Source: Anaerolineae bacterium
GTDB lineage: Bacteria > Chloroflexota > Anaerolineae > 4572-78 > J111
Length of the DNA: 49,503 nt
NCBI GenBank assembly: GCA_023382535.1
Contig: JAHDWA010000066.1
Coordinates: 1 to 49,503, forward strand
Reading direction: 5' to 3'
Part shown: positions 22,147-41,095 of the stretch, piece after piece
Layout: every line of letters starts with the position of its first letter
Position numbering within the stretch: position 1 is the stretch's first letter
Position numbers and translations under genes: made by a program
The notes under the pieces: generated by a model
What the model saw: only the letters and a program-made list of their open reading frames with translations
Told to the model about the DNA's origin: nothing
Databases searched by the model: none

Positions 22147-22973
22147 TCATTCCGGCGTCGCCATCGGAAAGGGTTGCTGCTGCGTCACCTGCCACTGAAA
22201 CAGACGGCTCTGCTCCGACCAGAGACTCTTGAAGTAGGCAATCACGGCTCGGATTTCGGCGTCGTTTAACTTATCGCCAAAGGGGGGCATGGTCAGTGGA
22301 CTGTCAGGCGGCTTGAGTGGGTCACGGAAACCATCGCGGATAATCTCGTAGAGCAGCCCGTCGGCGTGATGCCAGGTGTGGCCGGTGTCGTCGTGAGGGG
22401 GCGCCGGCATATTACCGTTAGCGTCAGGCTGTTTCCAGTTCGGTTGACCTTCGGCGTTTTGGCCGTGGCAGACCGCACACTGCCCAAGATAAACTTGGCG
22501 GCCCAAAGCAATCTCAGCCGCATCGAGCGTAGGGAGGGGGGAAGAGTTGCTGAAGCGGTTGCCGAGACCTGTTGATCCATGGCCGCAGCCAAAGCTTGCT
22601 GCAAAGCCTCCGCCAACTGCTCCGCCGATTGCGGTCCAATGAAGCGGCTCACTTCCTGGCCCTGCGGGTCAATGAGCAAGATGGTCGGGTGGCCCTGAAT
22701 CCGATAGGCCCGCATAATGGCCGGACCGTCCCCTTCATTGGCGTTAATCCGTTGAAAGGCAAGCTGGTCGCCAAATTGTGTCTCTAGCCCATCCACGATA
22801 GGCTTCATCGTTGCTCAAGGCGCTCAGGTATCAGTGTAAATGAAGACCAGGGTGGGTTGTCCGGGCTGCCCCAAGATAAGAGAATTTCCTCCACAACTCG
22901 CTACCCCTAGTACGACTGAACTAAGCAATATCAGAGTAAAGAGCCAAAACGTCCTTTTGAAGGTTTCGCGCAA
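22147..22973 (-). CDS. Thioredoxin-cytochrome c fusion lipoprotein with U-A-P-U active site (candidate selenoprotein)
   Basis: Read from TTG at 22973 (AAGGGA upstream), the protein starts with a lipoprotein signal ending VASC, then a thioredoxin-like domain: VFIYTDT-UGA-AP-UGA-ATMKPIVDG. The UGAs (22826-22824 and 22817-22815, residues 50 and 53) take the place of the CxxC cysteines. The cis-Pro loop GHPTILLID follows. An 8-bp hairpin (22804-22786) with loop GUG begins 10 nt after the second UGA, SECIS-like. Near 22536-22541 a C6 run must gain one base to join the cytochrome c part, which has CAVCH and the Met ligand in TMPPFGDKL. Together about 275 residues. It follows the DUF411 gene in the SCO/oxidase operon. 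If UGA is not read as Sec, only fragments would be made. Confidence 0.8.
22786..22804 (-). promoter_or_regulatory. SECIS-like hairpin of the thioredoxin-cytochrome gene
   Basis: AGCCUAUC pairs with GAUGGGCU (8 bp, one G-U) around the loop GUG. The loop starts 19 nt after the second UGA and 28 nt after the first, within the range known for bacterial SECIS elements, and begins with G as they require. Confidence 0.6.
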
Positions 22974-23019
22974 CGTTTTTCCCTTTCGAAAATAGACCGT
23001 CGACCACCAAGTCAGTAGA

Positions 23020-23103
23020 TAGAAGATAGTGGATAGCGGATAGAAAGAAGGATAGTCGCAAACAGTTATTTTCTATCTTCCATCTACCATCTGCTATCTT
23101 CTG
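23020..23103. repeat. Hexanucleotide-repeat hairpin (GATAGn type)
   Basis: Left arm with units such as AGAAGATAGTGGATAGCGG (23021 onward) faces a right arm CTATCTTCCATCTACCATC (23073 onward), giving an imperfect stem of about 30 bp. It lies between the DUF411 gene and the thioredoxin-cytochrome gene. Same style of construction as the heptamer hairpins in the riboswitches but with a different unit. Confidence 0.75.
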
Positions 23104-23104
23104 T

Positions 23105-23587
23105 TTAGGGGTAACTGGCAAAAACCTCTGTTTTGCCCGATTTATCAAAGGCAACCACTTCGTAAGGCTGGGGGGCAGTCCCGGCCACTTCCATGCCCGG
23201 TGAGCCGACCGGCATCCCCGGTACAGCCATTCCTATAATGTCGGGCCGTTCGGCCAAGAGCCGCCGAATCTCGGCCACGGGTACGTGCCCTTCCACGATA
23301 TAGCCATCTACGATGGCCGTATGGCAAGCCTGGAGTTGGGGAGGTATCTGATAACGGGCTTTTACTGCTGTCAGGTCTTGGGTATCTCCCACCTTTACGG
23401 TAAAGCCGTTTTCTTTGATATAGTCACTCCAGCCGCCACAGCAGCCTCAGGTGGGGGACTTGTAAATGGTGATCTCCGGTGATGAGTCTTCTGGTTGAGC
23501 CAGTGTTGTGGCAGGAGCAGTCCCACCACACGCTGCCAACAGCAACACCCCCAGCAGCCCCATCCCTAAAAAAAGTAGTCGCCACAT
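23105..23587 (-). CDS. DUF411 metal-binding lipoprotein with U-G-C-C motif (candidate selenoprotein)
   Basis: Read from ATG at 23587, the protein has a lipoprotein signal ending LAAC, a short linker and the DUF411 domain. The domain's signature, normally YKSPTCGCCG, here reads YKSPT-UGA-GCCG: the first cysteine codon is TGA (23449-23447, residue 47). Behind it the family pattern is intact: ACHTAIVDGYIVEGHVP and AVPGMPVGSPGME. Total 160 residues, normal for the family. DUF411 proteins occur in copper and heavy-metal resistance loci. A 6-bp hairpin directly abuts the UGA, but I found none at the classical SECIS distance. Lies 33 bp after the SCO1 gene; likely the same operon. Confidence 0.82.
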
Positions 23588-23620
23588 AAGCTATTATCTC
23601 CCTATAAATAGTAGACTTGA

Positions 23621-24279
23621 CTAACTTGACTTCTGTTTGAGCAGGTAGAGCAGATCACTCTGCAAATCTTCAGCCGTTAATTCGGAAGGGTACGTCAGCC
23701 ATAACTCACGCTGAGGCGTCACCAGATAGACCCGTCCAGTGTGCATGACCAAATAAGCGGGGGACGCCTGGGCCTGGTCAGGAGCAGCTTGGTCGTGGTT
23801 CTGATGGGCTGACGGCTCAGGCGCCTGTTCTTTGTCAGCGTAAGCCCAGAAAGATTTTAGCACGGCTTCCGTTTTGACAAAATCATCGGTCAGACCAATA
23901 AAGTCGGGGTTAAAATTACTCAGGTAGCGGGCTAAAACCTCGGGCGTGTCTCGCTCCGGGTCAACGGAGATAAAGATAAAGCGGACACCCGCTTGCTCAG
24001 CCGGGTCTAAACCGGCCAAAGCCTGTCTCACTTTGGCTACGGTTAAGGGGCAGACATCCGGGCAATGAGTGTAGCCAAAGAAGATCAAAGCAATTTTGCC
24101 CTCCAAATCACTCAGGCGAAAGAGCGAGCCATTGGTAGCTCGTAGTTCAAAGTCGGGCGCCGGCACAGGCGGATCAAGCAGGTTGCCCTTGTATTCGTAG
24201 GCCGCCTGACAACTGACGCCGAATAGGGCTAACCCGGCCAGAACAATGACGAGCCAAAACCAATAACTGACTTCTCCAA
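23621..24279 (-). CDS. SCO1/SenC-type copper chaperone lipoprotein, possible frameshift in signal
   Basis: Copper-binding thioredoxin-fold protein that assembles CuA-type centres. The domain has the copper ligands CPDVC (in FFGYTHCPDVCPLT) and His in YLVMHTGRVYLV; a His-rich insert (HQNHDQ) precedes it. The frame extends upstream of the GTG at 24166 through a clear lipoprotein signal ending GVSC. The best start, TTG at 24279 with AAGGAG upstream, is one base out of frame; adding one base to the A4/T4 run at 24256-24259 gives a continuous signal (MEKSVIGFWLVIVLAG). An ATT start at 24280 would avoid the frameshift. Follows the multicopper oxidase gene by about 20 bp. Confidence 0.85.
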
Positions 24280-24298
24280 TAAAGATCTCCTTGTTGAC

Positions 24299-25765: not shown

Positions 25766-25802
25766 ATTCGATCAGATATCTGTTCTGTAGAATTCCTACG
25801 AA

Positions 25803-25831
25803 ATTGTAGTAAATGACCTGGGAAATGTCAA
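25803..25831 (-). promoter_or_regulatory. Promoter of the multicopper oxidase operon
   Basis: On the minus strand a perfect TTGACA (25831-25826), a 17-bp spacer and TACAAT (25808-25803), about 38 bp before the start codon. It looks constitutive rather than MerR-controlled, since the spacer has normal length. Confidence 0.75.
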
Positions 25832-25873
25832 ACCTATTGAGATTGAGTGTGCCAGCTTGATTGATTTTGGGGC

Positions 25874-25904
25874 TTGACCTTCAAGTTACTTGAAGGTGTA
25901 TAAT
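25874..25904 (+). promoter_or_regulatory. MerR-type promoter with 19-bp spacer (regulator's own)
   Basis: TTGACC (25874-25879), 19-bp spacer and TATAAT (25899-25904). The spacer contains the dyad CCTTCAAG-TTA-CTTGAAGG centred between the boxes, the classic site of metal-sensing MerR proteins. Confidence 0.9.
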
Positions 25905-25940
25905 TATTTTTATGATAATTTGAGCGTACGGAAGATAAAA

Positions 25941-26378
25941 ATGGAAAACCAATTACATATTAGTGAGTTGGCCCGGCAAGTGGGTATGGCGCCCTCAATG
26001 ATACGCTACTACGAGGAAATTGGTTTGCTACCCCCAGCGGCCCGTAACGAGAGTGGCTACCGGATTTACAATGAAACCGATGTCGAACGCCTGCGCTTTA
26101 TCCAACGAGCGAAGGCGTTAGATTTTAGTTTGGAAGAGATCGGAGAGATTTTGGGCTTGCGCGAGCACGGTGACGCACCTTGTGCTTATGTGCTTAACCA
26201 AATTGAGGCCAAGATTGAAGAGATTGATCGCAAGATAGCGGCCTTGGTCCGGCTCAAAGCGGAGTTGGCGCAATTGCAGGGAGAAGCGGCTCGGTTGCCC
26301 TTGACTGAAATCGAAGCCAAAAGCTGTGTCTGCCATCTGATTGAGAATCAGCGGCTCATTACGCTAAGTGCAGATTGA
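25941..26378 (+). CDS. MerR-family metal-responsive regulator
   Basis: About 145 residues: an N-terminal MerR helix-turn-helix with SMIRYYEEIGLLPPA, a long coiled-coil dimer helix, and cysteines expected for metal sensing in GDAPCAYV and the C-terminal SCVCHLIE. The ATG at 25941 has GGAAGA upstream and the protein then begins in the usual way; the frame also runs back into the promoter, which is not coding. The cysteine pattern is of the MerR/PbrR/ZntR class rather than CueR's, but the exact metal cannot be told. The two nearly identical dyads here and at 26405 make it the likely regulator of itself and of the CcdA-HMA block. Confidence 0.9.
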   Translation: MENQLHISELARQVGMAPSMIRYYEEIGLLPPAARNESGYRIYNETDVERLRFIQRAKALDFSLEEIGEILGLREHGDAPCAYVLNQIEAKIEEIDRKIAALVRLKAELAQLQGEAARLPLTEIEAKSCVCHLIENQRLITLSAD

Positions 26379-26464: not shown

Positions 26465-27243
26465 ATGGACGAGAGGATAGCCAGTATGGATGACCGCAGC
26501 ATGAGCGGAATGGATGCATTAATGTCGTCAGACAACGACCCAATGACATTGATCGGTTTATTAGTAGTGCCCATCATCTTTGGCTTGGTGGGGGCCATCA
26601 CCCCTTCCGCACTTGGGATCAATGCCGTCTTCCTGGGCTATGTGACTGGCAAGCCCCGGCCACGTCGTTTGTGGGAGTGGTTCCGTTTGCCCTGGCTCGG
26701 GCTGTCCTACTCACCACCCTCGGTCTGGCCTTTGGCTTGTTGGGGCAAGTGGTCGGTGATTTCGTGCGCGGCTACCAGCAGTTCATCGCCTGGGGTTTAA
26801 TTGCTTTGGGCATCCTCTTCGTCCTGAGCCGATTCCGACGGTTGCCCTTGCCCTACCTGAGCCTGGTCAACGACCGGGCGCCGATCAGCAACAGCAGTGC
26901 CCTGGCTTTGGGGGCGCTCTTTGGGCTGGACATTTCGGCCTGTACCAGTCCTCTGGTGTTCGCTCTCCTGGCTCAGACGGTGCTGGTGGGCGACTGGCTC
27001 TTTGGCATGGCCGCCCTTTTCCTCTTTGGCGTCAGCATGAGCCTGCCCCTATTGCTGGTGATGATGACTGAAGGGGCCAATCGCTGGCTGGTCGAGGCCA
27101 GTCGGCGCTATAAGACGGCTTTCTATCTGGTGGCCGGAGGTTTACTCATCCTGTTCGGCGCGGCCGAACTGTCGCCACAAGTGATGAGCCTTGTGGGCGG
27201 TTGGCTTGAGTATATTGCCCAACCCTTGTTGTCTTTAACGTAG
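26465..27243 (+). CDS. CcdA-like membrane protein, reading frame broken once
   Basis: Two overlapping frames together give one CcdA/DsbD-type protein: helix 1 region ITPSALGINAVFLGYVTGKP in the first frame, then from about 26690 the second frame continues with FALARAVLLTTLGLAFGLLG and four more helices. Adding one base near 26680-26690 (GTTCCGTTT) restores a single frame of about 259 residues. Where CcdA has the helix-1 cysteine (TPCALG) this protein has serine; a cysteine remains in SACTSPLV. So either it is a non-classical family member or the sequence has errors. The start could also be ATG 26486 with GAGAGG upstream. The HMA gene follows after 9 bp; metal control is indicated by the MerR-type promoter. 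Confidence 0.7.
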
Positions 27244-27252
27244 GAGGAAACG

Positions 27253-27702
27253 ATGCGACGAATAATATTGTGGCTATGGTTGTTGATTTTGAATTTGCTG
27301 TTCGTGATAGGAGGCGTTGCTCACGCCCAGGATAACCTGGAAACCATCACCCTCCCTGTCGAAGGGATGGTCTGCCCCTTCTGCGCCGCTGCCGTGGAAA
27401 ACATCTTGGGAAGCCTGGATGGCGTCGTGGAGGCCAAAGCTGATTATATCAAAGGATTAGCCACGGTCAGCTACGATCCGACTCGGGTCACTCCGACTCA
27501 AATGGTAGAGGCCATTAATACCAAATCTTTCTACCGAGCCAGTTTGCCTCGTCTGGAAGAGACAACCGTTGAAGGAACTAATAGGGTCAATCCGCTGCCT
27601 TTCTTGGTTGGCGGTGTGCTGATTGTGCTACTAGGTGTGGGAACCTGGTGGGTTACGGCGCGGCGGCAAGCCGGTCGAGCTACCAAATCCGAAACATCGT
27701 AA
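27253..27702 (+). CDS. Exported heavy-metal-associated (HMA) domain protein
   Basis: 149 residues: signal peptide to about 25, an HMA domain with motif GMVCPFCAAAV at about 38-48, and a C-terminal helix at about 115-135, so the domain is held on the outer face. AGGAGG lies 6 nt before the ATG. It probably binds Cu(I) or a similar soft metal and exchanges it with neighbours. Same operon as the CcdA-like gene, 9 bp downstream. Unlike the MerP of the mer operon it keeps both cysteines. Confidence 0.88.
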   Translation: MRRIILWLWLLILNLLFVIGGVAHAQDNLETITLPVEGMVCPFCAAAVENILGSLDGVVEAKADYIKGLATVSYDPTRVTPTQMVEAINTKSFYRASLPRLEETTVEGTNRVNPLPFLVGGVLIVLLGVGTWWVTARRQAGRATKSETS

Positions 27703-28649: not shown

Positions 28650-31145
28650 ATGATGACTATTCAAACTAAAACCCTGAAAGTAATAGGCGAACAAACCATG
28701 CACTGCGGCGGTTGTGAGCATAGCGTGAAATTTGTCCTGGGGCAGTTGCCCGGTGTCCAAAGCGTCGAGGCCAGCCATAAAACCCAGCAAATCAATCTGA
28801 CCTTTGACCCGCAGTTGCTAAACCTGGAGCAGGTCCATCAAGCGCTGGATCGGCTTGGCTATGAAGTCTCAACTCAGGACAGTACGCCGATTCACCAGAA
28901 TACCGCCAAGTCCGGTGATAGCCTGGTTCCAAGGAATGGGACGGCCAAATTGCAGATGAAGGTCGGGGGGATGCACTGCTCCTTATGCACCGAGTCGATC
29001 TGCAAAGCGGTCGGACGCCTTGATGGGGTCCAATCCGTGCAGGTCAGCATCGCCCATGAGGAAGCCCTCGTCGAATATGACCCGGCCCGAGTGAGCGCAG
29101 GGGAAATCGAGGGCGCTCTGGAGGATCTCGGCTATTCCGTCCACGCGCCAGACCAGGCCGAGATTTTTGCCCAGGAAGAGCACGAACTGCAAATGGCTCG
29201 ACGCAAAGCCATCGTGGCGGGTGGGCTCGTCCTGACTGCATCAGTCTTGATGGTCATCGCGCTGATAGCCGGTCCAACTCTGCTCGGAACGGTCCTGATG
29301 GGCGCACTGGCACTGTATGCCGCGTTGGGTCCGGCCCGGTTCATTATCGCGCGCAATGGCTGGCAGTCCATCCGCCGCGGCATTCTCAATCAAGACGTAC
29401 TGGTGTCAGCCTCGGCCCTGGGTGGCCTGCTCGGTGGCTTGGTCGGTTTGGGGGTTCCAGCGGCGCCGGCAGGTGGCTTTTTTGGCGCGACCGTGTTTGT
29501 GCTGGCGTTCCACCTCATCGGTGGCTACGTTTCCGTGATGGTCCATGTCCGCGCCTCCCAATCGGTGCGCCGGCTGCTGGCCTTAGAGCCGCAGACGGCT
29601 CGGCGGATCGAGGCGAACGGGAATGAGGTCGAGGTACCGCTGGATCGCCTGAAGGTCGGCGACCTGGTTCGGGTTCGACCGGGCGAACGAATCCCGGTGG
29701 ATGGCGTGACCGTGGAAGGCGCCTCCGCCATTGACGAAAGCTTGGTGACGGGTGAGCCGCTGCCCAAGGATAAGCTCCTCGGCGACCCGGTCATTGGTGG
29801 CTCGCTGAACCAGACCGGCAGTCTCGTGGTGCGGGTGACGGCGGTAGGCAAGGATACCTTCCTGCGCAGTGTCGCGCGCTACGTGGCCGAAGCGCGGGCC
29901 ATGAAGCCGGGCATTTTGCGGCTGGTGGACCAGGTCTTGCTCATTTACGTCCCCGCCGTCTTTGCCGCCAGTGCGGCCGGGCTGCTCCTCTGGAGCGCCG
30001 GTTCCTGGCTCTGGGCGGGGGAGCCGGAGGTGCTGCGGGCTAGCTTCGCCGCCTTGAGTGTCCTGATTATGGGCTATCCCTGCGCGCTCGGCATGGCAAC
30101 GCCCTTGGCGATTGTCCGGGCCAGCGGTGAAGCGGCTAAACGCGGGATACTGATGCGCTCCGGTGAAGCTTTCCAGGTCTTCAAAAACGTCAATACCATC
30201 GTCTTTGACAAGACGGGAACCCTGACGGAAGGCAAGCCCAGCCTGGTTAACTGCCTGGCGCCAGGGGGTGATACCCAAGAGGTGTTGCGCCTGGCCGCCA
30301 GCGCGGAGATACTCTCTGAGCATCCCCTGGCCCAGGCCGTGGTCACTGCGGCTCAGGCGCAAGCGCTCACGTTGGCGACGCCGACGCATTTTGAGGCTCG
30401 ACCGGGGCGGGGGGTGATAGCCATGGTTGAGGGATATCAGGTCCTGATAGGCACCCCTCGCTTCTTGGCCGAGGAACACCTGGATACCGCTGCCCTCCAA
30501 CCCTTACTAGAGCAGGTACAAGTGCAGGGACAAACGGCGGTTTTGGTGGCCGTGGATGGACAGGCGACTGGCGTGCTGGCCCTCGCTGACCAAATCAAGT
30601 CCGACGCGCCGGCAACCATCGCGCGGTTACATGACCAGGGGCTGAGCGTGGTCTTGATAACGGGCGATAACTGGCGGACCGCCCGAGCCGTCGCTGAAGC
30701 GGTTGGGATCGGGCGGTTGGAGGCCGAGGTGCTGCCCGGGGCCAAGGCGGAGGAGATCCGTCGCCTTCAGGCGCAAGGGGCACGGGTGGCGATGGTTGGC
30801 GATGGCATCAATGACGCCCCCGCCCTGATGCAGGCTGATGTGGGGATTGCCATCGGGGCTGGGACCGACATAGCGATAGATGCGGCGGATGTGGTCTTGG
30901 TCAGCAACCATCTCAGCACCCTAATTGAGGCTCGCGAACTCGCCCGACGGAGCTACCAATTGACGGCTACCAATGTGGGCTTGGCGCTCAGCTTCAACGG
31001 CATCGGTGTCCTGGCGGCGATCACTGGGGTAGTCTACCCGGTCTGGGCCATGCTGGCGATGGCCGTCAGCGTGAGTGTGGTGCTGACCAACTCGTTTGCT
31101 GGCCGGCTCCTACCCAGGCGCATGCTGGCCGCCAAGCACAGGTGA
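28650..31145 (+). CDS. Heavy-metal P1B-type ATPase (copper-type) with YPC motif
   Basis: 831 residues. Two N-terminal HMA domains carry CGGC (about 22-25) and CSLC (about 110-113). Eight helices follow. The phosphorylation motif DKTGT lies at about 519, the GDGIND hinge at about 716, and the actuator-domain TGEP near 372. The transmembrane metal motif, CPC in copper ATPases, is YPC here ([11 protein letters not shown], about residue 475): one codon difference, TAT instead of TGT. It exports a soft metal, probably Cu(I), possibly with altered specificity. AAGGAG precedes the ATG pair. It converges with the btuD remnant. Confidence 0.93.
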
Positions 31146-32222: not shown

Positions 32223-33630
32223 GGCTGACACGGCCCTGGTCAGGACGGCCCGCATCTTTCAGGGGGCCCGGCGGACAGCTTACAGGCGGCTGAACGAGGG
32301 GCTACAACGGGATGACATCGAGCCCGGCCTGCGCAACCGTTTTCGGCTGGATGCCCGTTTTGCCCGGGACGCCATTCTGGAAGCCGAGGCCAACCGCAGT
32401 TCTATGCAGGAACTCATGCCGGAATATTTGGCTAACACTCAGCGCAAGATAGCCAAAGTGGAGGCTCGGCTGAAGGATTATCGCACCGGCAAGCGCCAAC
32501 CAAAACGGGTCACCTTGGAGGCGGCTCTGATCGGGCTGGAGCACCGCTTGACGAAACTGCAGGCCAAACAGGATATATGGCAGGCTCACCTGGATGCGGG
32601 AACAACGCCCATGCCCATTTTTGGCGGCGCAGCGGCCTTTCACACCCGGCGAAAAGGTCAAATATCGCGCGCTACCTGGCGGGCTCGCCGCCGGGCGCAG
32701 TTCTGGAGCCGGGGCGAGAAACACAAGGATGGCAACCAGCACGCGCGGATTATCCCCAAGGAAGACAGTTTCACCATCTCTATTGCCACGTTACCAATGG
32801 TGGAGGGTCGGCTGACCTATGTCAGCGCCGATCTGTGGCTGCCGCAAGAAAAGCGAGATTTGCTGAGAGCAGGGCTGGCTAATGCTTATTCGGTGAGACT
32901 GATCCGTAGTCGAGTGGGCTGGAAAGCACATATCACGATACGAGAACAGGTGAGGGGCGAGCTATTGAACGTTGTACCCGATACTGCGATCACCGGGGGA
33001 TTGGATGGCAATACCGACCGGTTGACCGTCGTCGCCATCAGTCCTCAAGGGAATCTACTGGCCCGACAGACGGTCTGGATGCCCAATCTGGGTGATATGC
33101 GAGCGAATAAGGCTGGCCTGGTGATTGGCCAGGCTTTGACTGAAGCTCTGAAATGGCTCTCCCAACAGGGGGCCACTTGCCTGGTCGTGGAGAAACTCAA
33201 ATTTGCCCAGGACCATGACACCCATCACCGCTCCAACCGCTCGATCTCCAAGTTCCGTAGTACGATGGTCAAACTGGCGATTCGACTGGCTTTGCGGCAA
33301 GGCATTAGCGTCGTTCAAATCAATCCGGCTTACACGTCTGTCATCGGTAAACATAAATATGTTGCCTCTTACGGAATGAGCGGTCACGAAGCGGCTGCTT
33401 ACGTGATTGCCCGGCGAGGTCAGGGTCGGGCGGAACGACTACCCAAAGAAATCGTGACTCAGTTCCCGCAGTTACGGGAATGGTTGATCGCCGCAGCGAA
33501 AGCCAAACCGGCGAAAGATCGGGAACGGGCCAAGTTCTTGAGATGGGCTGAGAAATTAGCCGACTGGAAAAACCAGCACCCCTGGTCGCTCTGGTCGATC
33601 TGGGATAAGGCGACGAGCCTTATCGCTTAA
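32173..33630 (+). CDS. tnpB: TnpB-family RNA-guided nuclease of the IS607 element
   Basis: 485 residues. The RuvC-like active site shows Asp278 in GGLDGN and Glu339 in LVVEKLKF; the third acidic position is in the region SGHEAAAYVIARRG, where the usual DxNAA is replaced by HEAAA, so the third catalytic residue is uncertain. No CxxC zinc ribbon lies between, unlike classical TnpB; this fits the TnpB-related subgroup with NPAYTS and SxHxAAA motifs. By analogy to characterised TnpB proteins it would cut the empty donor site under guidance of the element's RNA. Overlaps tnpA by 50 bp. Confidence 0.9.
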   Translation: MILVMTLQGTIHNLSDEADTALVRTARIFQGARRTAYRRLNEGLQRDDIEPGLRNRFRLDARFARDAILEAEANRSSMQELMPEYLANTQRKIAKVEARLKDYRTGKRQPKRVTLEAALIGLEHRLTKLQAKQDIWQAHLDAGTTPMPIFGGAAAFHTRRKGQISRATWRARRRAQFWSRGEKHKDGNQHARIIPKEDSFTISIATLPMVEGRLTYVSADLWLPQEKRDLLRAGLANAYSVRLIRSRVGWKAHITIREQVRGELLNVVPDTAITGGLDGNTDRLTVVAISPQGNLLARQTVWMPNLGDMRANKAGLVIGQALTEALKWLSQQGATCLVVEKLKFAQDHDTHHRSNRSISKFRSTMVKLAIRLALRQGISVVQINPAYTSVIGKHKYVASYGMSGHEAAAYVIARRGQGRAERLPKEIVTQFPQLREWLIAAAKAKPAKDRERAKFLRWAEKLADWKNQHPWSLWSIWDKATSLIA

Positions 33631-33885
33631 AAATGATTTATTAAGCTTGGCCGTGCGCGGGTGTTTCCCACGGAAGGATTAGCTCGCGTTCCGGCAGGTA
33701 GGGGCCCTAACAGGGCGCTCAGGGCTGACTTCGGCAGTAGGCCGATGTCGGATTTATCCCCTTGAGGTCGACTCAGCGGTGGGATTCCGCTTTCCTAGCG
33801 AGGGACTGTTCCCTCAAAGTGCGCCCCAGTTTCCAGGTCTTGGGACGTGACGCCTGCTACTATTTGAGGCGGTTTTGGAAACCTG
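33631..33885 (+). ncRNA. Putative omega RNA (reRNA) region of the IS607 element
   Basis: About 255 nt of GC-rich, hairpin-rich, non-coding sequence directly behind tnpB, ending at the right edge of the element. This is where TnpB guide RNAs are encoded, with the guide taken from the flank, here beginning near 33886 in btuD (GTTACGCCAAGGCTC). Visible short stems include GGGTGTTTCCC and GGGGCCCTAACAGGGCGC-type pairings. The 45-nt end segment recurs, about 87% identical, at 49450-49494. Assignment is by position and analogy. Confidence 0.6.
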
Positions 33886-33889
33886 GTTA

Positions 33890-34445
33890 CGCCAAGGCTC
33901 TTTACCAGTTCCAGAATCTCCAGTTGGTAGTAGATGTCAAGATGATTGGTCGGCTCATCTAAAACGAGGAATTTGGCCTGCTGCGCCAGGGCGCGGGCTA
34001 TCAGCACCCGCTGTTTTTCACCACCGGAGAGGGTCAGAAACGAACGTCGGGCCAAATCGCACAGCCCTACCCGCGCCAGGGCCTCATCTACCAACCGAAA
34101 ATCTTCCTCGCTATCCCGATCAAACATGGTTTTGTGGGGATAGCGACCCATGAGCACCATTTCTTGCACCGAAAAATCAAAGTCGCCGCTCTGTTCCTGC
34201 ATCACCACGGCCATGCGCCGGGCCGCCTCACGGGCCGATAGCCACCAGACATCGGTCTCGTCCAGGTGAATGAGCCCGGCCTCGGGCTTGAGGATGCGGT
34301 AAATGGTCCGCAGCAAACTCGACTTGCCGCTGCCGTTGGGACCAAGCAGACCCACAAACTCGCCCGGCTTCACTTGAAGCGTAACCTCATCCACAATTTT
34401 TCTGGCCTCAACCGACCAGGTGACCGCGTCAACCTGAAGTTTCAT
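33890..34445 (-). pseudogene. btuD: btuD 5' part (ABC ATPase), cut by IS607 insertion
   Basis: N-terminal three quarters of an iron/cobalamin-type ABC ATPase: Walker A GPNGSGKS, Q-loop VVMQEQ, signature LSGGEKQR, Walker B KFLVLDEP and D-loop THLD are all present, then the frame enters the element after KSLGVT and ends in unrelated sequence. The H-loop half lies at 31227-31479. Start overlaps btuC by 4 bp. With the ATPase split, the importer should be inactive unless the element excises or another ATPase substitutes. Confidence 0.9.
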
Positions 34446-35533
34446 CGCTGGCCCCCTTTGCTTTTAAGTTGGCCCCGCAGCAACCACAGGAAAAACGGCC
34501 CGCCCAGCAACGAGGTGATGACCCCCACCGGCAGTTCAACCGGGGCAAAAGCGGTGCGGGCGACCACGTCTACCCAAATCAAGAAGATGCTGCCAACAAA
34601 GACCGACACCGGCAGCACCCGCCGGTGGTCAGTACCGACCATCAGCCGGACGAGGTGGGGCATCATCAGGCCGACAAAGCCAATCGCCCCGCTAACGGCC
34701 ACCATCGTGCCTGTCAGCAGCGAAACTATCAGAAAAAGCTGGCGGCGGAAGCGAGTGGTATCCACGCCCAGCGTAGCCGCCGTTTCCTCGCCCACGATGA
34801 GGGCATTAAGCGCGCGGGTTTGCGACGCCAGGTAGAGCATGCCCAGGGCCAGCACAGCGGCCGGCAGGCCCAGGTCAACCCACTCGGCTCCGGCCAAACT
34901 GCCCAGCAGCCAGGCCAGCACCGAGCGGGCCAGCTCGCGCTTAGCGGAGGTCAGGGTGATGAAACTGGTCAGGCCAGAAAAGAAGTAAGAGACAGCCAGC
35001 CCGGATAACACCAGTCGCGTCGGACCGAGCTGACCGTTGCTCTGAGCCAGTATAAACACAATGACGAAGGTCAACAGTGAGCCGATAAACGCGCCAAAAG
35101 AGATAGCGTACACCCCGGCAAAGACAAATGCGCCCAAAGCCAGCACCATTACCGCTCCCACCGACGCCCCGGACGAGATACCCAGAAGGTACGGGTCGGC
35201 CAGGAGATTACGCACCATCGCCTGCATGGTCACGCCGACTACGGCCAATCCTGCCCCGACAAACATAGCCAACAGGACCCGGGGCAAGCGGATCAGCCAG
35301 ACAATGTTGTATTGGGCCTGCGTCCAGTCGCCTGCTATCCCACTAATAACTTCCGATAGAGCGATCCGCCACACCTGCCCGGCAGGGATGGGTACCGGGC
35401 CGATGACAACCGCCAGGGTGATAGAGATAAACAGCAGACCGACCAGCGTCGCCAGCAATAACCAGAAGCATCGTTGCTCGGCGCGATGTTGTGTTTGGTT
35501 AGCAAGCTGAATGTGACTAAGGCTGGACACCAA
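34442..35533 (-). CDS. btuC: Cobalamin ABC importer permease (BtuC/FecCD family)
   Basis: 363-residue polytopic permease with about ten helices and FecCD family motifs such as GAGLAVVGVTMQAMVRNLLADPY and LGISSGASVGAV, and the ATPase-contacting region GVITSLLGGPFFLWLL near the end. It would move cobalamin or a related corrinoid across the membrane. Cobalamin rather than siderophore is inferred from the riboswitch upstream of btuF. Start is GTG at 35533; a TTG a few codons later is possible. 102 bp separate it from btuF. Confidence 0.9.
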   Translation of the reverse strand: MVSSLSHIQLANQTQHRAEQRCFWLLLATLVGLLFISITLAVVIGPVPIPAGQVWRIALSEVISGIAGDWTQAQYNIVWLIRLPRVLLAMFVGAGLAVVGVTMQAMVRNLLADPYLLGISSGASVGAVMVLALGAFVFAGVYAISFGAFIGSLLTFVIVFILAQSNGQLGPTRLVLSGLAVSYFFSGLTSFITLTSAKRELARSVLAWLLGSLAGAEWVDLGLPAAVLALGMLYLASQTRALNALIVGEETAATLGVDTTRFRRQLFLIVSLLTGTMVAVSGAIGFVGLMMPHLVRLMVGTDHRRVLPVSVFVGSIFLIWVDVVARTAFAPVELPVGVITSLLGGPFFLWLLRGQLKSKGGQR

Positions 35534-35635
35534 TCTACCCCCATTATTCTACCGACCAGGATCGAGGTGATCCGCGAAGGAACATCGAAACGTATTCGGC
35601 GTCTCCGAGTTCTTCGTGGCTCTATTGCTAATAAC

Positions 35636-36745
35636 CTACTCAAACTTTTCCGGATAAAACGCCTCGGCCAGGGTGCGGGTGCGAGCCACGTTGCGCGGAC
35701 CTGGGGTGGCTTCGGCATAGGTCAGGACGACAAACTTGTTGTTTTTGATGGCTTCGACAGCGGCCAATTGGGGCTTGCTTTTCAGGAAGTTAATCTTGCC
35801 TGGGGCATCTGGCTCACCGTAGTCTACAATGACGATGTATTCGGGGTTGCGGTTGAGCACATCTTCCCAGTTAACGGTCGTCCAACTGGTGTCAACATCG
35901 TTAAAGATGTTAACCCCGCCTGCGGCCTCAATCATAGCGTTGGGCATAGCAAATTTGCCGGCCGTAAACGGCGACTCTTCCCCGCTGTCGTACACAAACA
36001 CGCGGATAGGCTTATCCACTTGGCCGATGGCGGCTTTGATTTCGGCCAATTGGGCGCGATACTGCTCGACCTTCGCTCGAGCTTGGGCCTCAACGCCAAA
36101 AATCTGGCCGATATTGAGCATATCGGAGAAGGTGTCTTCCAGGCTAATCTGCTCGCGCGGCTTAATCCGAATGCAAGACTCGGTCAAGACGTAGGATTTG
36201 ATACCATACCTGGCCAGGCTCTCCGGGGTCATGCCTTTCTCCTCAGAGAAGCCGTAGTTCCACCCGGCAAAGAAGAAGTCCGGCTCAGCGCCAACCAGCG
36301 CCTCAAGGTCAATATACTTATCCGAAAGCAGAGGAATACCTTTCAGCATCTCCCGGTATTCGGGGGCAACTTCGCGGGTATCGGAGACGCCACTATAGCC
36401 GATCAACTTATCTTTCAAGCCCACATCCAGAAAAATCTCGGTGATGTTAACATCGTTGGTCACGGCTCGTTGGGGTGGGGCCTCAAAGGTGACCGGCTCG
36501 CCACACATGGTAACAGTGACGGGGAAACCTTCTGCGGTGGCCTTATCGGCAGTTTGGGTAGCTGTGGCGTCAGTGGCCTCCACTCCCTCTTTTTGAGGCG
36601 TTTCTTTGCTCACATTCTCAGCTTGACCAACCGCTTGTTCAGTCGCCGCCGGTTTGCCGCTTTCGGAGGCGACCGCGCCGCCACAAGCGGCCAGAATAGT
36701 AGCTAATAGGATCATCAGCAGGTTGATTTTTAGTTGCTTCATCAC
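35636..36745 (-). CDS. btuF: Cobalamin-binding lipoprotein of ABC importer (BtuF-like)
   Basis: 369 residues: lipoprotein signal with LAAC (Cys near 21), a polar linker, and the periplasmic-binding fold of the BtuF/FhuD class from about residue 75 (VTFEAPPQRAVTNDVNITEI, DLEALVGAEPDFFFAGW). It captures the ligand and delivers it to the permease. Cobalamin is the likely ligand because a cobalamin riboswitch lies in its leader; the binding domain alone would not distinguish siderophores. First gene of btuF-btuC-btuD. Confidence 0.9.
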   Translation of the reverse strand: MMKQLKINLLMILLATILAACGGAVASESGKPAATEQAVGQAENVSKETPQKEGVEATDATATQTADKATAEGFPVTVTMCGEPVTFEAPPQRAVTNDVNITEIFLDVGLKDKLIGYSGVSDTREVAPEYREMLKGIPLLSDKYIDLEALVGAEPDFFFAGWNYGFSEEKGMTPESLARYGIKSYVLTESCIRIKPREQISLEDTFSDMLNIGQIFGVEAQARAKVEQYRAQLAEIKAAIGQVDKPIRVFVYDSGEESPFTAGKFAMPNAMIEAAGGVNIFNDVDTSWTTVNWEDVLNRNPEYIVIVDYGEPDAPGKINFLKSKPQLAAVEAIKNNKFVVLTYAEATPGPRNVARTRTLAEAFYPEKFE

Positions 36746-36899: not shown

Positions 36900-37110
36900 A
36901 CACAAGCCCCAGTGAAAGCGGGTATTCGGGCTTCACCGATTTTGGATTTTGGATTGACGATTTTGGATGGTAGACCGAAATCCAAAATCTAAAATCTAAA
37001 ATCTAAAATCCAATGTTACCGTTGCGGGACAGCGCCGGACTTGCACCGGTCTTCCCCCATTGTGCGCCGCGCATCCGGGCGGCTGGCGCACCTTCACTGG
37101 CTTCTCTATG
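36900..37110 (-). ncRNA. Cobalamin riboswitch upstream of btuF
   Basis: Minus strand: core GGGGGAAGACCGGTGCAAG followed by TCCGGCGCTGTCCCGCAACGG (split by no insertions, about 37061-37020) and B12-box-like AGCCCGAATACCCGC (about 36931-36917). A closing stem pairs AAGCCAGUGAA (about 37104-37094) with UUCACUGGGGCUU (36916-36904), GG bulged. The variable arm is a heptamer-repeat hairpin. Followed by two terminators. Cobalamin should repress btuFCD. Confidence 0.93.
36934..37012. repeat. Heptanucleotide-repeat hairpin inside the btuF riboswitch
   Basis: CGATTTTGGATTTTGGATT faces AAATCCAAAATCTAAAATC around a loop at about 36969-36976. Same unit and same location within the aptamer as at 21297-21372. 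Confidence 0.8.
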
Positions 37111-37124
37111 ATTGTTTGGGCCGG

Positions 37125-37433: not shown

Positions 37434-37467
37434 CGCTATTGAGGGCCTGTACAAGGAGCAGATCGTT

Positions 37468-37956
37468 ATGAGGACAGGTGGCAAACAATTGGAACAAACG
37501 GATGCACAAACAGTCGGTGGGCTACGCATTGGTGAATTGGCTCAGGCCAGCGGCGCTTCAACTAAAACGATCCGTTTTTACGAGCAGGTAGGCTTGTTAC
37601 CCCCAGCACAGCGGGCCAAAAACCGCTATCGGCTCTATGATGTAGAGGATGTGCGGCGGCTGCGCTTCATCCGCAACGCCCGTAGCTTGGGCTTTTCCCT
37701 GGATGACCTCAAAGAAGTGCTGGCCCTGCGAGATCAAGGTGAAGCGCCTTGTCGTTATGTGGCCCACCTGCTTGAGGAAAAGGCAGCGGAGGTTGAGGAA
37801 CGGATTCGCCAGTTGCAAGAACTACAGCAGGATTTGCAGCAGTTACTGCGCCAAGCCAGCGATTTACCCGACGATGACATTGAAATGAAGGAGTGTGTCT
37901 GTCACCTCATTCAAATTAAAGAGCTCAAACACCGGGAGATTTATGATGACCGTTGA
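37468..37956 (+). CDS. merR: MerR mercury-responsive regulator
   Basis: 162 residues: MerR helix-turn-helix (STKTIRFYEQVGLLPPA), long dimer helix and three cysteines in GEAPCRYV and ECVCHLIQ, the positions used for Hg(II) binding across the dimer in MerR-class regulators. AAGGAG lies 9 nt before the ATG. It is encoded inside the operon it should control, as in Gram-positive-type mer operons, behind a promoter with a 19-bp spacer and its own dyad. A shift of 25 residues at the N-terminus relative to compact MerR is seen. Confidence 0.9.
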   Translation: MRTGGKQLEQTDAQTVGGLRIGELAQASGASTKTIRFYEQVGLLPPAQRAKNRYRLYDVEDVRRLRFIRNARSLGFSLDDLKEVLALRDQGEAPCRYVAHLLEEKAAEVEERIRQLQELQQDLQQLLRQASDLPDDDIEMKECVCHLIQIKELKHREIYDDR

Positions 37957-37986
37957 AACAAAAACTCTAAAAGGAAATTTTCACTT

Positions 37987-39417
37987 ATGGCTGAAAAATT
38001 CGATCTCGTGATCCTCGGCGCCGGCTCGACCGCCTTCGCAGCTGCACTCAGGACCGCCGAGTTGGGCAGGACGGCGGTCATGACTGAGTCCCGCACCCTC
38101 GGCGGCACGTGTGTCAACCGTGGCTGCTTGCCCAGCAAGAACCTCATCGAGGCGGCCCGCATTATTTGGGAGGCGCAGTATCCCCGCTATCCGGGCTTGC
38201 GACCGGCCAAGATTGAATTTGATTTTAAGGAACTCATTCGCCAGAAGGATGAGGTCATTCACGATTACCGCGATCGTAAGTACAACTCGATTGTGGAGGA
38301 CGTGGACAAGATCAAGGTCTATCAGGACCACGTGTCGTTCTTGGATAACCGCACCGTCATGGTTGATGGTCGCGTCCTATCCGGGGAGCAGTTTCTCATC
38401 GCCACTGGCAGCCGGCCGACCCTCCCCACGATTGAGGGTCTTGATCAAGTACCCTACCTTACCTCTGATTTACTGACCTCGGGCGAACCGCAAGAACTGT
38501 TCGAATTACCCAAATCCTTAGTTATCATCGGCGGTGGCTACATTGCGCTCGAGCTAGGCCAGATGTTCCATCGTTTTGGTAGTCAAGTGACCATCCTTGA
38601 ACGGAGCCGCCGGATTCTCAAGGAGTACGAGCCGGAAGTTTCAAGGACCTTGACCGATGCTCTGCTTGAGGAGGGGATCACTCTGGTGACAGGAGTTCAG
38701 GCCCAACGTGTCTTCCAGGAGAGTGACGAAATCGTTGTCGTTGGTCAGAAGGGTGGGGTTGAGCAGCGTTTCCGAGCGGAACGGCTGCTCGTCGCCACCG
38801 GCCGGATACCGAACACCGACAACATCGGAATTGAGAAAATTGGAGTGGCGTTGGACGAGCGGGGCTTCGTCAAGGTCAACGACGAACTACAGACAAATAT
38901 CCCCTACGTGTGGGCGGCCGGTGATGTGATTGGAAGCCATACAGGAAGCCAGCTTGCCACCCCGGTCGGCGCTCACGACGGCGGCATTGCCGCTTTGAAC
39001 GCGCTGAACGATGAACGGCGGAAGGTGAACCACACCGTGATCCCCCGGACGATCTTCACCGATCCGCAAGTGGCCGTGGTGGGCCTGACCGATGCTGAAG
39101 CCAACGCGCAGGGCCATCGCTGCTGGTGCAACACCATCCCGGTCAAACTGGTGCCGCGAGCCGGGGCAATTCGGGATACCCGCGGCATCGCCAAGATGGT
39201 GATTGACGTGAATACAAACAAGGTGCTCGGCGTGTCACTGGTCATGCGGGATGCCGGTGAGGTCATCCACGAGGCGGCTATGGGCTTGCGCCTGGGCGCT
39301 ACTCTGGATGATTTCATTGACCTGCTCCACGTCTACCCAACCATGGCCGAGGCGTTAAAGATTGTGGCTATCTCGCGCTACAAAGACCCGGAAAAGCTCT
39401 CCTGCTGCGCGGAGTGA
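37987..39417 (+). CDS. merA: Mercuric reductase MerA
   Basis: 476-residue flavin disulfide reductase that reduces Hg(II) to Hg(0) with NADPH in the cytoplasm. FAD motif [12 protein letters not shown] at the start, redox-active CVNRGC at 42-47, NAD(P)H motif [12 protein letters not shown], and the C-terminal vicinal pair Cys473-Cys474 (SCCAE) that hands Hg to the active site and separates MerA from dihydrolipoamide dehydrogenases. It lacks the N-terminal HMA domain of many MerA proteins. Starts 30 bp behind merR; AAAAGG upstream. Confidence 0.95.
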
Positions 39418-39489
39418 CTCCACAGAGATAGCAAAGTGTAGTTGTGACGTGGACTGAATGTAAATATTATGCTAAAGGAGATAGTAATT

Positions 39490-40164
39490 GTGAAAACACC
39501 AAACTTATATGAAATTTCCGCAGGGTTAAGTAAGGCGGGCATCGATATAAATTTTGGGCCAGACGTATCACGCCTGGTCATTCAAATCTGGCGACTCTTA
39601 GCTGAGGGTCGGCCTATCTCCCTTGAACAAGTCGAGCAAATAGCCGCTCATCTCCAAATACCTCATAACACCTTGACCGCTTTTCAGAGTAAGTATAAAG
39701 CAGGTTTCGAGTTCAATGCTGAAGGCAACATTGTCGGCTGGATCGGGTTATCACTGAACCCTCATCATTCATACCGATTTCAGGTAAATGATCATCTGCT
39801 GTTTGCCTGGTGTGGCTGGGACACTTTATTCCTGCCGCCCATTCTCAAGCAAACTGCTGTGGTCGAGTCCTCTTGTCCTGCCACTGCAAAGAAGATTCGG
39901 CTAACGATAACGCCTGAGGGAGTAGAACTATATGAGCCAACCAGCGCCGTTATCTCCATCATCATCCCCAAAACAAACATTTTGGAGTCGGGTTCTGCTG
40001 AAGGAGTCTGGCTGGCCTTTTGTAATCATGTCCATATCTTTAGTTCCCCTGAAGCGGCCTCAGAATGGTTCTTGGGGAAAGACGAAGAACCAATCATCCT
40101 CTCAATAGAAGAGGGATACCAACTTGGGCGTATTCGATTTGAGAAAAATCTTAAGTATGCTTAG
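39490..40164 (+). CDS. merB: Organomercurial lyase MerB
   Basis: About 224 residues. The catalytic residues of MerB are visible: the first Cys and the Asp in FAWCGWDTLF near residue 107, and the second Cys in FCNHVHIF near 178. It splits carbon-mercury bonds and passes Hg(II) to MerA, giving resistance to methylmercury as well. The GTG at 39490 is chosen because AAAGGAG lies 9 nt upstream; an ATG 21 nt earlier lacks a ribosome site. The winged-helix-like N-terminal region (SLEQVEQIAAHLQIP) is normal for the family. Confidence 0.93.
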   Translation: MKTPNLYEISAGLSKAGIDINFGPDVSRLVIQIWRLLAEGRPISLEQVEQIAAHLQIPHNTLTAFQSKYKAGFEFNAEGNIVGWIGLSLNPHHSYRFQVNDHLLFAWCGWDTLFLPPILKQTAVVESSCPATAKKIRLTITPEGVELYEPTSAVISIIIPKTNILESGSAEGVWLAFCNHVHIFSSPEAASEWFLGKDEEPIILSIEEGYQLGRIRFEKNLKYA

Positions 40165-40166
40165 AA

Positions 40167-40640
40167 GTGGTGGTGGGAACGGTGTCACCTGGCGACTTGA
40201 ACGGCTATTGCCCTGGCTCGGCCGGCTCAGCCTTTGGCGGCTTGGCGGTGATGTGTTGCATAGGCTGGACGGGCCTGGCCAGTCTCTTGCCTACTCTTGG
40301 CCTTGGTTTTCTCGTCTACACCGCGAATACAGAGCGACTCATTTACGTGGCTCTCACCTTCTCCGGCCTGGGCTTTGGGCTCTCCTGGCGACGCCATCGC
40401 CGCCCCTGGTCATTTATCGTGGCCGCTATCGGCGCGGGGCTGCTGCTCTACCCCTTCCATCACGCGCTCGAGGTGACGCTGTGGGTCGTCCTGGTGTATG
40501 CCGGGTTGGCCCTGTTATTCAGTGCTTCTGTGCTCGATGCGTGGCTGACTCACCGGGCCGCCCGTTACTGTACGCTCTCCCCCAACCGCCGCCACGCGCA
40601 AGCGGAACCCCAATTTACTAAAGGAGTAAAGTCCCTATGA
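40167..40640 (+). CDS. MerC/MerT-like mercury transport membrane protein
   Basis: 157 residues with about four helices. The first helix region carries a vicinal cysteine pair (AVMCCIGWTGLA), as in MerC and MerT, where it binds Hg(II) for transfer to the cytoplasm. The rest (LGLGFLVYTANTERLIYV, PWSFIVAAIGAGLLLYPF) resembles MerC-type proteins rather than MerT. The GTG start at 40167 is 3 nt after merB; ATG 40251 is an alternative that would start right before the cysteines. Ends ATGA-overlapped with merP. Assignment is by position and cysteine pair. Confidence 0.65.
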   Translation: MVVGTVSPGDLNGYCPGSAGSAFGGLAVMCCIGWTGLASLLPTLGLGFLVYTANTERLIYVALTFSGLGFGLSWRRHRRPWSFIVAAIGAGLLLYPFHHALEVTLWVVLVYAGLALLFSASVLDAWLTHRAARYCTLSPNRRHAQAEPQFTKGVKSL

Positions 40641-41095
40641 GTAAGTCCCCATCTGACAAATCACACTCCAGGCTCAGAGGGCTTTGGCCCGCGTCACTCA
40701 GTTGGCTGTTGATAGGCATTGCCCTGACCATCGGCTTGAGTGCCTGTGCGCCACAGCCGAAACAGAGCATTCCGGCCACGGCGTCAACCAGCGCACCACC
40801 ACCAGCGACAACTGCCCAGGAGATAGTCCCCACCCCCGCAATCGGCTCAATTGCGACGAACCCGGCTGGATTGGAGACGAGGCTTGGCTTCACTGTCCAT
40901 GGCTGGACCTGAAACGGCTGAATTGCCGTCACGCTGGCGAGCGTCCGGCAGTTGCCGGGGATCGGTGAAATCACAGGGAACTTGGCCACGGGTACGCTCA
41001 TTGTTACTTACGACCCGGCCCAAGTGACCCCAGCGCAAATCATTCAAAAGATCGAAGCTGTTGGCTACAGCGTCGAAAGGACGTTTGAACCATGA
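40637..41095 (+). CDS. merP: MerP-like HMA lipoprotein with U-N-G-U motif (candidate selenoprotein)
   Basis: 152 residues if both internal UGAs are read as selenocysteine. A lipoprotein signal ends LSAC; a linker follows; the HMA domain begins near residue 82. Its metal motif, normally GMTCxxC, reads HGWT-UGA-NG-UGA-IAVTLASV: UGAs at 40910-40912 and 40919-40921, residues 92 and 95. The rest of the fold matches HMA (ITGNLATGTLIVTYDPAQV, IIQKIEAVGYSVE). A two-part hairpin with loop GGCG at 40925-40949 resembles a bacterial SECIS. Coupled by 4-bp overlaps to both neighbours, merC-like and merT. It would bind Hg(II) outside the cell by selenolate and pass it to MerT. Confidence 0.85.
40925..40949 (+). 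promoter_or_regulatory. SECIS-like hairpin of merP
   Basis: GCCG/CGGC lower stem, 2x1 internal loop, ACGCU/AGCGU upper stem and loop GGCG at 40936-40939. The loop starts 15 nt after the second and 24 nt after the first UGA and opens with GG. Confidence 0.6.

What the first reader, a model, noticed from the sequence alone, without database searches (positions are those of the whole stretch)
22147..41095. A selenoprotein set built into a mercury/copper resistance region
Three exported metal or thiol proteins carry in-frame UGA at exactly the conserved cysteine positions: five UGAs in all (residues 92/95 in MerP, 50/53 in the thioredoxin domain, 47 in DUF411). Outside these positions the frames stay open and family-typical, and neighbouring genes use UGA as a true stop. 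Hg(II) binds selenolate more strongly than thiolate, so a Sec-armed extracellular trap is chemically sensible. All three are lipoproteins on the outer face. A selenium-based metal defence distributed over two operons appears undescribed to me, though single Sec-containing thioredoxin-like and mercury-transport-like proteins have been reported from metagenomes.
Basis: partly seen in the sequence, partly recalled or inferred. Interest (0 to 1): 0.95.

Follow-up and report, generated by a model that had tools for sequence, protein, structure and literature searches.

The report
Selenium-armed copper and mercury defence genes
Three predicted exported proteins in this bacterial copper and mercury resistance region carry UGA codons exactly where their relatives have conserved cysteines, and dozens of related genomes repeat the pattern, so the bacterium likely builds selenium into its metal defence.

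Summary
Five in-frame UGAs sit at CopG/DUF411 residue 47 (CxCC becomes UxCC), thioredoxin 50/53 (UxxU) and a MerP-like domain 92/95 (UxxU). The pattern recurs in relatives: CopG-UGA in 22 of the 30 best loci from a 396-genome sample, thioredoxin UGA+UGA in 28 of the 30 best loci, MerP-like UGA in 6 genomes (2 UxxU, 4 UxxC). UGA ends 18 of 43 window ORFs, so it is not reassigned. Covarying hairpins follow the UGAs in thioredoxin and MerP; for CopG no supported SECIS was found. Among 32 UGA-bearing relatives 18 have tRNA-Sec, SelA, SelB and SelD, and 31 at least one; but SelA is common in the class anyway (318 of 396), and the window's own genome is not held. The genes lie in a copper operon (MCO-SCO1-CopG-Trx-cytochrome c) and a mer operon (MerR-A-B-C-P-T). 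One relative, G254, has all three UGA forms plus a MerA-like flavoprotein with UGA at its first redox cysteine. Sec-CopG and an exported UxxU thioredoxin were not found in the literature searched; multi-selenoprotein organometal operons (SAO) and UxxU metal-binding proteins are already known. Metal chemistry is inferred, not shown.

The parts
23105..23587 (-). CopG (DUF411) lipoprotein with UGA at residue 47: UxCC in place of CxCC
   Evidence: PF04214 92.7 bits; 6wis, E 7.9e-34
23447..23449 (-). UGA codon, predicted Sec47 of CopG
   Evidence: TGA in 24 of 110 alignments at this column, TGC/TGT in the other 86 (some genomes are in twice)
22566..22973 (-). Thioredoxin-domain lipoprotein with UAPU in place of CxxC
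22815..22826 (-). The two thioredoxin UGA codons (22824-22826 and 22815-22817)
   Evidence: TGA,TGA in 28 of the 30 best loci of relatives
22786..22804 (-). SECIS-like hairpin after the thioredoxin UGAs (8 bp, loop GUG at +21 from the second UGA)
22147..22506 (-). Cytochrome c domain following the thioredoxin, frame offset in the window; one ORF with thioredoxin in relative G064
23621..24166 (-). SCO1/SenC copper chaperone
   Evidence: 125.7 bits
24299..25765 (-). Multicopper oxidase
   Evidence: TIGR01480 290.8 bits, below its cut-off of 478.95
25890..26378 (+). MerR-family regulator beside the copper operon
27253..27702 (+). HMA-domain membrane protein with ordinary CxxC
28650..31145 (+). 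P1B-type heavy-metal ATPase with two HMA domains
   Evidence: TIGR01525 540 bits, over cut-off
37468..37956 (+). MerR-like regulator of the mer operon
   Evidence: read from the sequence, no HMM run on it; tblastn matches in relatives
37987..39417 (+). MerA mercuric reductase, ordinary CVNRGC
   Evidence: TIGR02053 506.8 bits, over cut-off
39469..40164 (+). MerB organomercurial lyase
   Evidence: PF03243 91.2 bits; NCBIfam MerB models hit below cut-off
40167..40640 (+). MerC-like transporter
   Evidence: 27.9 bits, below cut-off
40637..41095 (+). MerP-like HMA lipoprotein with UNGU in place of CxxC; own stop is UGA at 41093
40910..40921 (+). The two MerP UGA codons (40910-40912 and 40919-40921)
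40923..40940 (+). SECIS-like hairpin 1 after the MerP UGAs
40944..40959 (+). Second conserved hairpin after the MerP UGAs (loop AGUU)
41092..41433 (+). MerT mercuric transporter, overlapping the MerP stop
   Evidence: PF02411 54.6 bits vs 32.9

Best explanation
The window encodes three predicted exported metal or redox proteins (CopG with UxCC, a thioredoxin with UxxU, a MerP-like domain with UxxU) whose in-frame UGA codons fall on conserved cysteine columns and are likely read as selenocysteine, which would give a copper and mercury defence selenium ligands on the outer face of the cell. Shown: the UGA/Cys columns in many genomes, operon context, covarying hairpins behind the thioredoxin and MerP UGAs, and Sec machinery in most relatives tested. 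Inferred: SelB inserts Sec in this organism. CopG-Sec likely contributes a selenolate bridge to the Cu(I) cluster that Cys-CopG forms, next to SCO1 and a multicopper oxidase. The UxxU thioredoxin likely exchanges electrons between these Cu sites and the attached or neighbouring cytochrome c. MerP-Sec likely captures Hg(II) outside the membrane and hands it to MerT, for reduction by MerA.
For: UGA at exact cysteine columns: CopG column 24 TGA, 47 TGC, 39 TGT and nothing else in 110 alignments; Trx TGA/TGA in 28 of the 30 best loci; MerP-like 2 genomes TGA/TGA and 4 TGA then TGC/TGT. Pfam over cut-off for all three. CopG aligns to 6wis with CxCC, CHT and the PGM..PGM methionines kept. Trx hairpin: 85.8% of cells paired, 8 cells changed on both sides, covariation score reached by 0 of 500 shuffles; its Ile, Val and Gly codons are ATC 27/27, GTG 30/30, GGG 29/29 although those codons make up 48%, 35% and 20% of window use. 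MerP hairpins: 89% paired, 7 cells changed on both sides, covariation score 0 of 500. Sec machinery in 32 UGA-bearing relatives: tRNA-Sec 24, SelA 28 (27 over cut-off), SelD 25, SelB 25. Context: MerT beside MerP-UGA in 4 of 6 neighbourhoods; a P1B ATPase in 12 and a cytochrome c in 10 of 17 Trx-UGA stretches; a P1B ATPase adjacent in 4 of 19 CopG-UGA stretches.
Against: No genome of this organism is held, so its own selA/B/C/D are untested. SelA is common in the class: 318 of 396 genomes, so 28 of 32 among UGA carriers against 290 of the other 364 is no clear enrichment. One UGA-bearing genome (G300) shows none of the four Sec genes. No SECIS with support was found for CopG: RNAalifold predicts no pair, hairpin energy is no better than in Cys homologues, and a candidate stem has no covariation. 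The window's Trx hairpin alone is modest (z -1.40; 3.5% of synonymous shuffles as good), MerP's weaker (10-15%), and the window MerP's own minimum-energy fold is not the comparative one. In one search the Trx stem slid by +1 has as many cells changed on both sides (8), and the count of further pair types does not exceed the shuffles (457 of 500); the shuffle counts ignore kinship. In one search most CopG-UGA stretches show no other gene of the window nearby. The Trx-cytochrome c reading has a frame offset. No metal binding, expression or resistance was measured.
Confidence: 0.8

Rival explanations
1. These are selenoproteins, but Sec serves redox catalysis (repair of oxidised proteins, thiol/selenol exchange with the respiratory chain) rather than capture of Cu or Hg; their place in metal operons reflects oxidative stress caused by metals.
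For: CopG and the thioredoxin have a thioredoxin-like fold (PMC7558416 passage), and most known selenoproteins are redox enzymes (PMC2398784 and PMC1088965, passages). The Trx is one ORF with cytochrome c in G064. A review passage states that CopG is proposed to oxidise Cu(I) (PMC7558416).
Against: The MerP-like protein is an HMA metal-binding domain in a mer operon next to MerT. MerT stands beside MerP-UGA in 4 of 6 relatives, and a P1B ATPase is in 12 of 17 Trx-UGA stretches, though adjacent in only 4 of 19 CopG-UGA stretches.
Confidence: 0.35
2. The UGAs are true stops: short truncated products, pseudogenes, or sequencing errors.
For: UGA is a normal stop in this window (18 of 43 ORFs counted), and the contig has two likely frameshifts (Trx-cytochrome c; DsbD-like 26465-27243).
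Against: The same UGA recurs in 23 other CopG genes, 28 Trx loci and 6 MerP-like genomes; the CopG-UGA matches are 49-67% identical to the window protein across the UGA; hairpins covary in Trx and MerP.
Confidence: 0.03
3. UGA is generally reassigned (Trp, Cys or Gly) in this lineage.
For: None seen; several in-frame UGAs lie in one region.
Against: UGA terminates 18 of 43 window ORFs counted, including the MerP-like gene itself; relatives hold tRNA-Sec with anticodon TCA (12 of 12 loci scanned), SelA, SelB and a SelD that itself has one in-frame TGA in 24 of the 25 genomes with a SelD match.
Confidence: 0.02
4. MerP and thioredoxin contain Sec, but CopG's UGA is decoded by some other means or is a regulated stop that gives a truncated lipoprotein when selenium is short.
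For: No SECIS with support for CopG.
Against: 24 CopG genes, the window's included, keep the UGA at one column with the rest of the metal motif. Gly codon GGC at +4 in 21 of 24 UGA forms vs 4 of 14 Chloroflexota Cys forms (p 0.0004) hints at a constraint, though the Gly residue itself is also more frequent there.
Confidence: 0.08

Closest known systems
CopG (DUF411, PDB 6wis/6wje) copper-resistance protein
   Same: Aligned over residues 39-160 at E 7.9e-34 with CxCC, CHT and PGMPxGSPGM kept; neighbours are SCO1 and a multicopper oxidase; copG/cutG genes cluster with multicopper oxidase genes (PMC7558416 passage).
   Different: First Cys of CxCC is UGA; a predicted lipoprotein; none of the searches or lists found a Sec form.
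UxxU metal-binding (seleno)protein NF041115 and GOS 'mercuric transport protein MerP' selenoproteins
   Same: HMA domain with UxxU at the metal motif for NF041115; MerP listed as a selenoprotein family.
   Different: Window protein scores 36.7 bits against a cut-off of 95 for NF041115; it is a 152-residue predicted lipoprotein between MerC-like and MerT genes.
SAO (Sec-assisted organometallic) operon
   Same: Several selenoproteins in one metal-related gene set (PMC13188914 passage).
   Different: The review lists SaoB, SaoC, SaoL, SaoP, SaoT and SaoX; here MerB matches SaoL only at 19.2 bits against 140. The proteins here are CopG, thioredoxin and MerP. The SAO paper itself was not held.
Sec-containing thioredoxins (UxxC) and UxxU Prx-like proteins
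   Same: Thioredoxin fold with Sec in the redox motif (passages).
   Different: Both redox cysteines are UGA, the protein is a predicted exported lipoprotein, and it is one ORF with cytochrome c in G064.

Membership tests
Selenoproteins | In-frame UGA at a column where homologues have Cys, with both forms in other genomes | tested here: met
Selenoproteins | SECIS-like hairpin after UGA: thioredoxin and MerP | tested here: met
   (comparative support; the window's own folds are weaker)
Selenoproteins | SECIS-like hairpin after UGA: CopG | tested here: inconclusive
Selenoproteins | Sec machinery in relatives that carry the UGA genes | tested here: met
   32 genomes: tRNA-Sec 24, SelA 28, SelD 25, SelB 25; all four in 18; none in G300. 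Not enriched over the class: SelA in 318 of 396
Selenoproteins | Sec machinery in the window's own genome | not testable with these tools
   no genome held; no tRNA gene in the window
CopG/DUF411 | PF04214 match over gathering score | tested here: met
   92.7 bits vs 27
CopG/DUF411 | CxCC plus methionines that bind the Cu4 cluster | tested here: inconclusive
   UxCC instead of CxCC; the aligned methionines are kept
CopG/DUF411 | Tetranuclear copper cluster | not testable with these tools
   needs protein
Thioredoxin | PF00085 match over gathering score | tested here: met
   43.8 bits vs 23.5
Thioredoxin | CxxC redox motif | tested here: not met
   UAPU at both positions
MerP (TIGR02052) | Match to the MerP model | tested here: not met
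   no hit to TIGR02052 listed up to E 0.01; generic HMA PF00403 45.5 bits is met
MerP (TIGR02052) | Encoded next to MerT in a mer operon | tested here: met
   window 40637-41433; also L153, L154, L187, L188, 4 of 6 relatives
NF041115 UxxU metal-binding protein | Score over curated cut-off | tested here: not met
   36.7 vs 95
SAO system | SaoL-type MerB-like lyase | tested here: not met
   19.2 vs 140 bits

The most novel reading that the evidence does not exclude
A lineage related to Chloroflexota runs a selenium-based soft-metal defence on its outer surface: selenolate-bridged copper clusters in CopG, a diselenide thioredoxin wired to cytochrome c, a diselenol mercury scavenger feeding MerT, and in some members a MerA-like flavoenzyme with Sec in its catalytic pair, the first system in which Sec is recruited across two metal-resistance operons as ligand and redox relay together.
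Probability: 0.45. Interest if true: 0.92.

Novelty: new variant of a known kind. Interest (0 to 1): 0.8.

Why it matters
Selenium and mercury are usually told as antagonists. If right, these bacteria put Sec where copper and mercury are handled. It would add CopG (a copper-cluster protein) and an exported UxxU thioredoxin to the selenoprotein list, would predict a biological selenolate-bridged copper cluster, and would mean that standard gene calls cut these resistance proteins at their active sites.

Tried and rejected
Rejected: pseudogenes or sequencing error (the pattern recurs in many genomes); general UGA reassignment; membership in NF041115 or SAO. Tried without result: viral contigs (24 stretches, none a relative); plasmids (29 records; the 10 listed are all metal ATPases); SECIS for CopG. 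An early hint that UGA-CopG prefers TGT at +3 (20/24 vs 35/86 Cys forms) vanished against Chloroflexota Cys forms (11/14). The Sec-CopG tree (24 Sec, 81 Cys rows) needs 6 changes of label on the free quick tree but does not reject one clade (p-AU 0.642); 122 columns are few. A class-wide contrast of machinery: SelA is in 318 of 396 genomes, and in 28 of the 32 UGA carriers tested, so I see no clear enrichment; many of the other 364 also carry Trx-UGA genes, so it is not a clean contrast. The same contrast for tRNA-Sec did not complete.

The sources limit the claim of novelty: the CopG structure paper, Haft and Tolstoy 2025 and Haft and Gwadz 2023 were not held; I saw only what the 2026 review's passages say of the latter two.
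Full report
WHAT IS THERE. The five in-frame TGAs are real. On the minus strand a copper operon reads multicopper oxidase (25765-24299), SCO1 (24166-23621), CopG/DUF411 (23587-23105, TGA at residue 47), thioredoxin lipoprotein (from TTG 22973, TGA at residues 50 and 53) and a cytochrome c domain (22506-22147). On the plus strand a mer operon reads MerR-like, MerA, MerB, MerC-like, MerP-like (TGA at residues 92 and 95) and MerT, with the MerC-like/MerP-like and MerP-like/MerT frames overlapping. A P1B ATPase, a MerR regulator and an HMA membrane protein lie between. The MerP-like gene ends in a true UGA that overlaps the MerT start, and UGA ends 18 of the 43 ORFs that I counted, so UGA is not reassigned here.

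MORE THAN CHANCE. Of 563 DUF411 relatives in genome contigs the best 80 were kept; 78 have Cys and 2 have TGA at the column. One of the scan's patterns held the Cys, so UGA forms are undercounted there. In 396 genomes of one class 54 have a DUF411 match. Of the 30 best loci 22 have TGA and 8 have TGC/TGT. Over all 110 alignments, in which some genomes appear twice, the column is TGC 47, TGT 39, TGA 24. For the thioredoxin 384 of 396 genomes have some match; of the 30 best loci, chosen by similarity to a UxxU query, 28 have TGA at both columns, one TGA/TGC, one not covered (a second, weaker match in L185 is TGC/TGC). For the MerP-like protein 326 of 396 genomes match, most through HMA domains of long ORFs such as ATPases. 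Of the 30 best loci 23 are Cys/Cys, one not covered, and six carry UGA: G307 and G254 (TGA, TGA), G200, G300, G121 (TGA, TGC) and G078 (TGA, TGT). G254 has all three genes in UGA form (L097, L124, L180).

HOW THE UGAs MAY BE READ. After the thioredoxin UGAs lies a hairpin with its loop at +21 from the second UGA. Over 30 sequences 85.8% of cells pair, 8 cells change on both sides, and no shuffle reaches the covariation score. Against it: the stem slid by one column also shows 8 such cells, the number of further pair types does not exceed the shuffles, and shuffles ignore kinship. The codons in it are frozen: ATC 27/27 Ile, GTG 30/30 Val, GGG 29/29 Gly. After the MerP UGAs two hairpins are kept over 7 sequences with 7 cells changed on both sides; few sequences, and the window's own best fold differs. 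For CopG nothing with support was found: no RNAalifold pair, energies like the Cys homologues, and a candidate stem without covariation. Only a Gly codon bias at +4 (21/24 vs 4/14) points to constraint; the Gly residue itself is also more frequent there, so this may be protein-level.

MACHINERY. No genome is held for the window. tRNA-Sec was over cut-off in 13 of 13 Chloroflexota handles (5 of 14 control genomes also passed), with anticodon TCA in 12 of 12 loci scanned. I then tested 32 genomes with UGA genes: the 22 with CopG-UGA, five more with MerP-UGA and five of the many with Trx-UGA. tRNA-Sec 24 (at E 1e-9, only 94 candidates per genome scored; 3 of 14 controls rang), SelA 28 (27 over cut-off), SelD 25, of which 24 genomes have a match with an in-frame TGA of its own, SelB 25. 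Reading the four tables together, 18 have all four, 31 at least one, and G300 none. Most are fragmented assemblies, so misses are not clear absences, but G300 stands against the reading. SelA is found in 318 of the 396 genomes of the class, so 28 of 32 is in line with the class: the capacity is there, but the co-occurrence is not specific evidence.

CONTEXT IN RELATIVES. MerP-UGA stands beside MerT in L153, L154, L187 and L188; L189 has MerA and MerR nearby; L190 has neither MerT nor MerA among the matches. Of 17 Trx-UGA stretches 12 hold a P1B ATPase (next door in L192-L196) and 10 a cytochrome c. In L206 and L214 Trx-UGA is followed by a Cys CopG. Of 19 CopG-UGA stretches a P1B ATPase is next door in 4 (L202, L216, L219, L220); in many no other window gene matched. 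Several stretches are cut by short contigs. In G064 thioredoxin and cytochrome c form one ORF; in the window the frames are offset. A fourth UGA gene appears in relatives only: a MerA/dihydrolipoyl-dehydrogenase-like flavoprotein with TGA at the first Cys of CVNxGC in L153, L154, L187 and L211. It scores below the MerA cut-off in the three tested (382.1, 369.7 and 404.4 vs 454.45). The window's MerA has Cys there.

WHAT IT LIKELY DOES. CopG of known structure (6wis) aligns with its metal motif; a review says that it binds a tetranuclear copper cluster through CxCC and two methionines and is proposed to oxidise Cu(I) (PMC7558416, passage). Sec at the first position would make one bridging ligand a selenolate. 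A thioredoxin with two Sec next to cytochrome c would pass electrons or reset oxidised Cu proteins. A MerP-like protein with two Sec would hold Hg(II) before MerT. These three roles are inference. That Hg(II) prefers selenolate is recalled knowledge.

WHAT IS KNOWN. Sec MerP and 'putative mercuric transport protein' families were listed from ocean metagenomes (PMC2398784, passages). [quoted passage not shown] It contains no DUF411, PF04214, CopG or Chloroflex. No paper in the library holds DUF411 with selenoprotein, or COG3019 with selenoprotein; four hold CopG, copper and selenocysteine, by title none on this subject. Five hold UxxU with selenoprotein; in the four biological ones I saw the passages and they concern Prx-like, mercuric-reductase-like, FmdB and SELENOW proteins, not a UxxU thioredoxin. 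deep-Sep has no mention of these terms (PMC12013277). NCBIfam of June 2026 has no model that matches the Sec-CopG. Three key papers were not held. So the kind (selenoproteins in metal handling) is known, and the set is a new variant: Sec-CopG, exported UxxU thioredoxin, exported UxxU MerP-like lipoprotein.

VERDICT. Selenoproteins: very likely. Metal defence: supported by context, best for MerP and thioredoxin. Selenium as metal ligand: plausible and untested.

Noticed in passing
L153:810-2159, L154:10236-11579, L187:4877-6202, L211:2732-4075: MerA/Lpd-like flavoprotein reductase with UGA at the first Cys of the catalytic CVNxGC pair, in three genomes near MerP-UGA and MerT: a possible further selenoprotein family.
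   Followed up: partly
window 31539-33630: Serine resolvase-like gene (HTH + Resolvase) overlapping a TnpB-like gene (no Pfam hit; likeness recalled), an arrangement like IS607 (name recalled), between the copper region and the mer operon.
   Followed up: partly
window 21259-21468 and 36900-37110: Two cobalamin riboswitches on the minus strand; the second precedes a periplasmic binding protein, FecCD permease and ABC ATPase set (33795-36745).
   Followed up: partly
window 26465-27243: DsbD/CcdA-like membrane gene that seems split over two frames, a second likely frameshift in this contig besides the Trx-cytochrome c offset.
   Followed up: partly
window 28650-31145: P1B ATPase has GYPCALG where CPC is usual in copper ATPases (motif recalled).
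   Followed up: no
L185:1134-1863: Tandem thioredoxin lipoproteins in G302, one with TGA/TGC and one with TGC/TGC at the redox motif.
   Followed up: no
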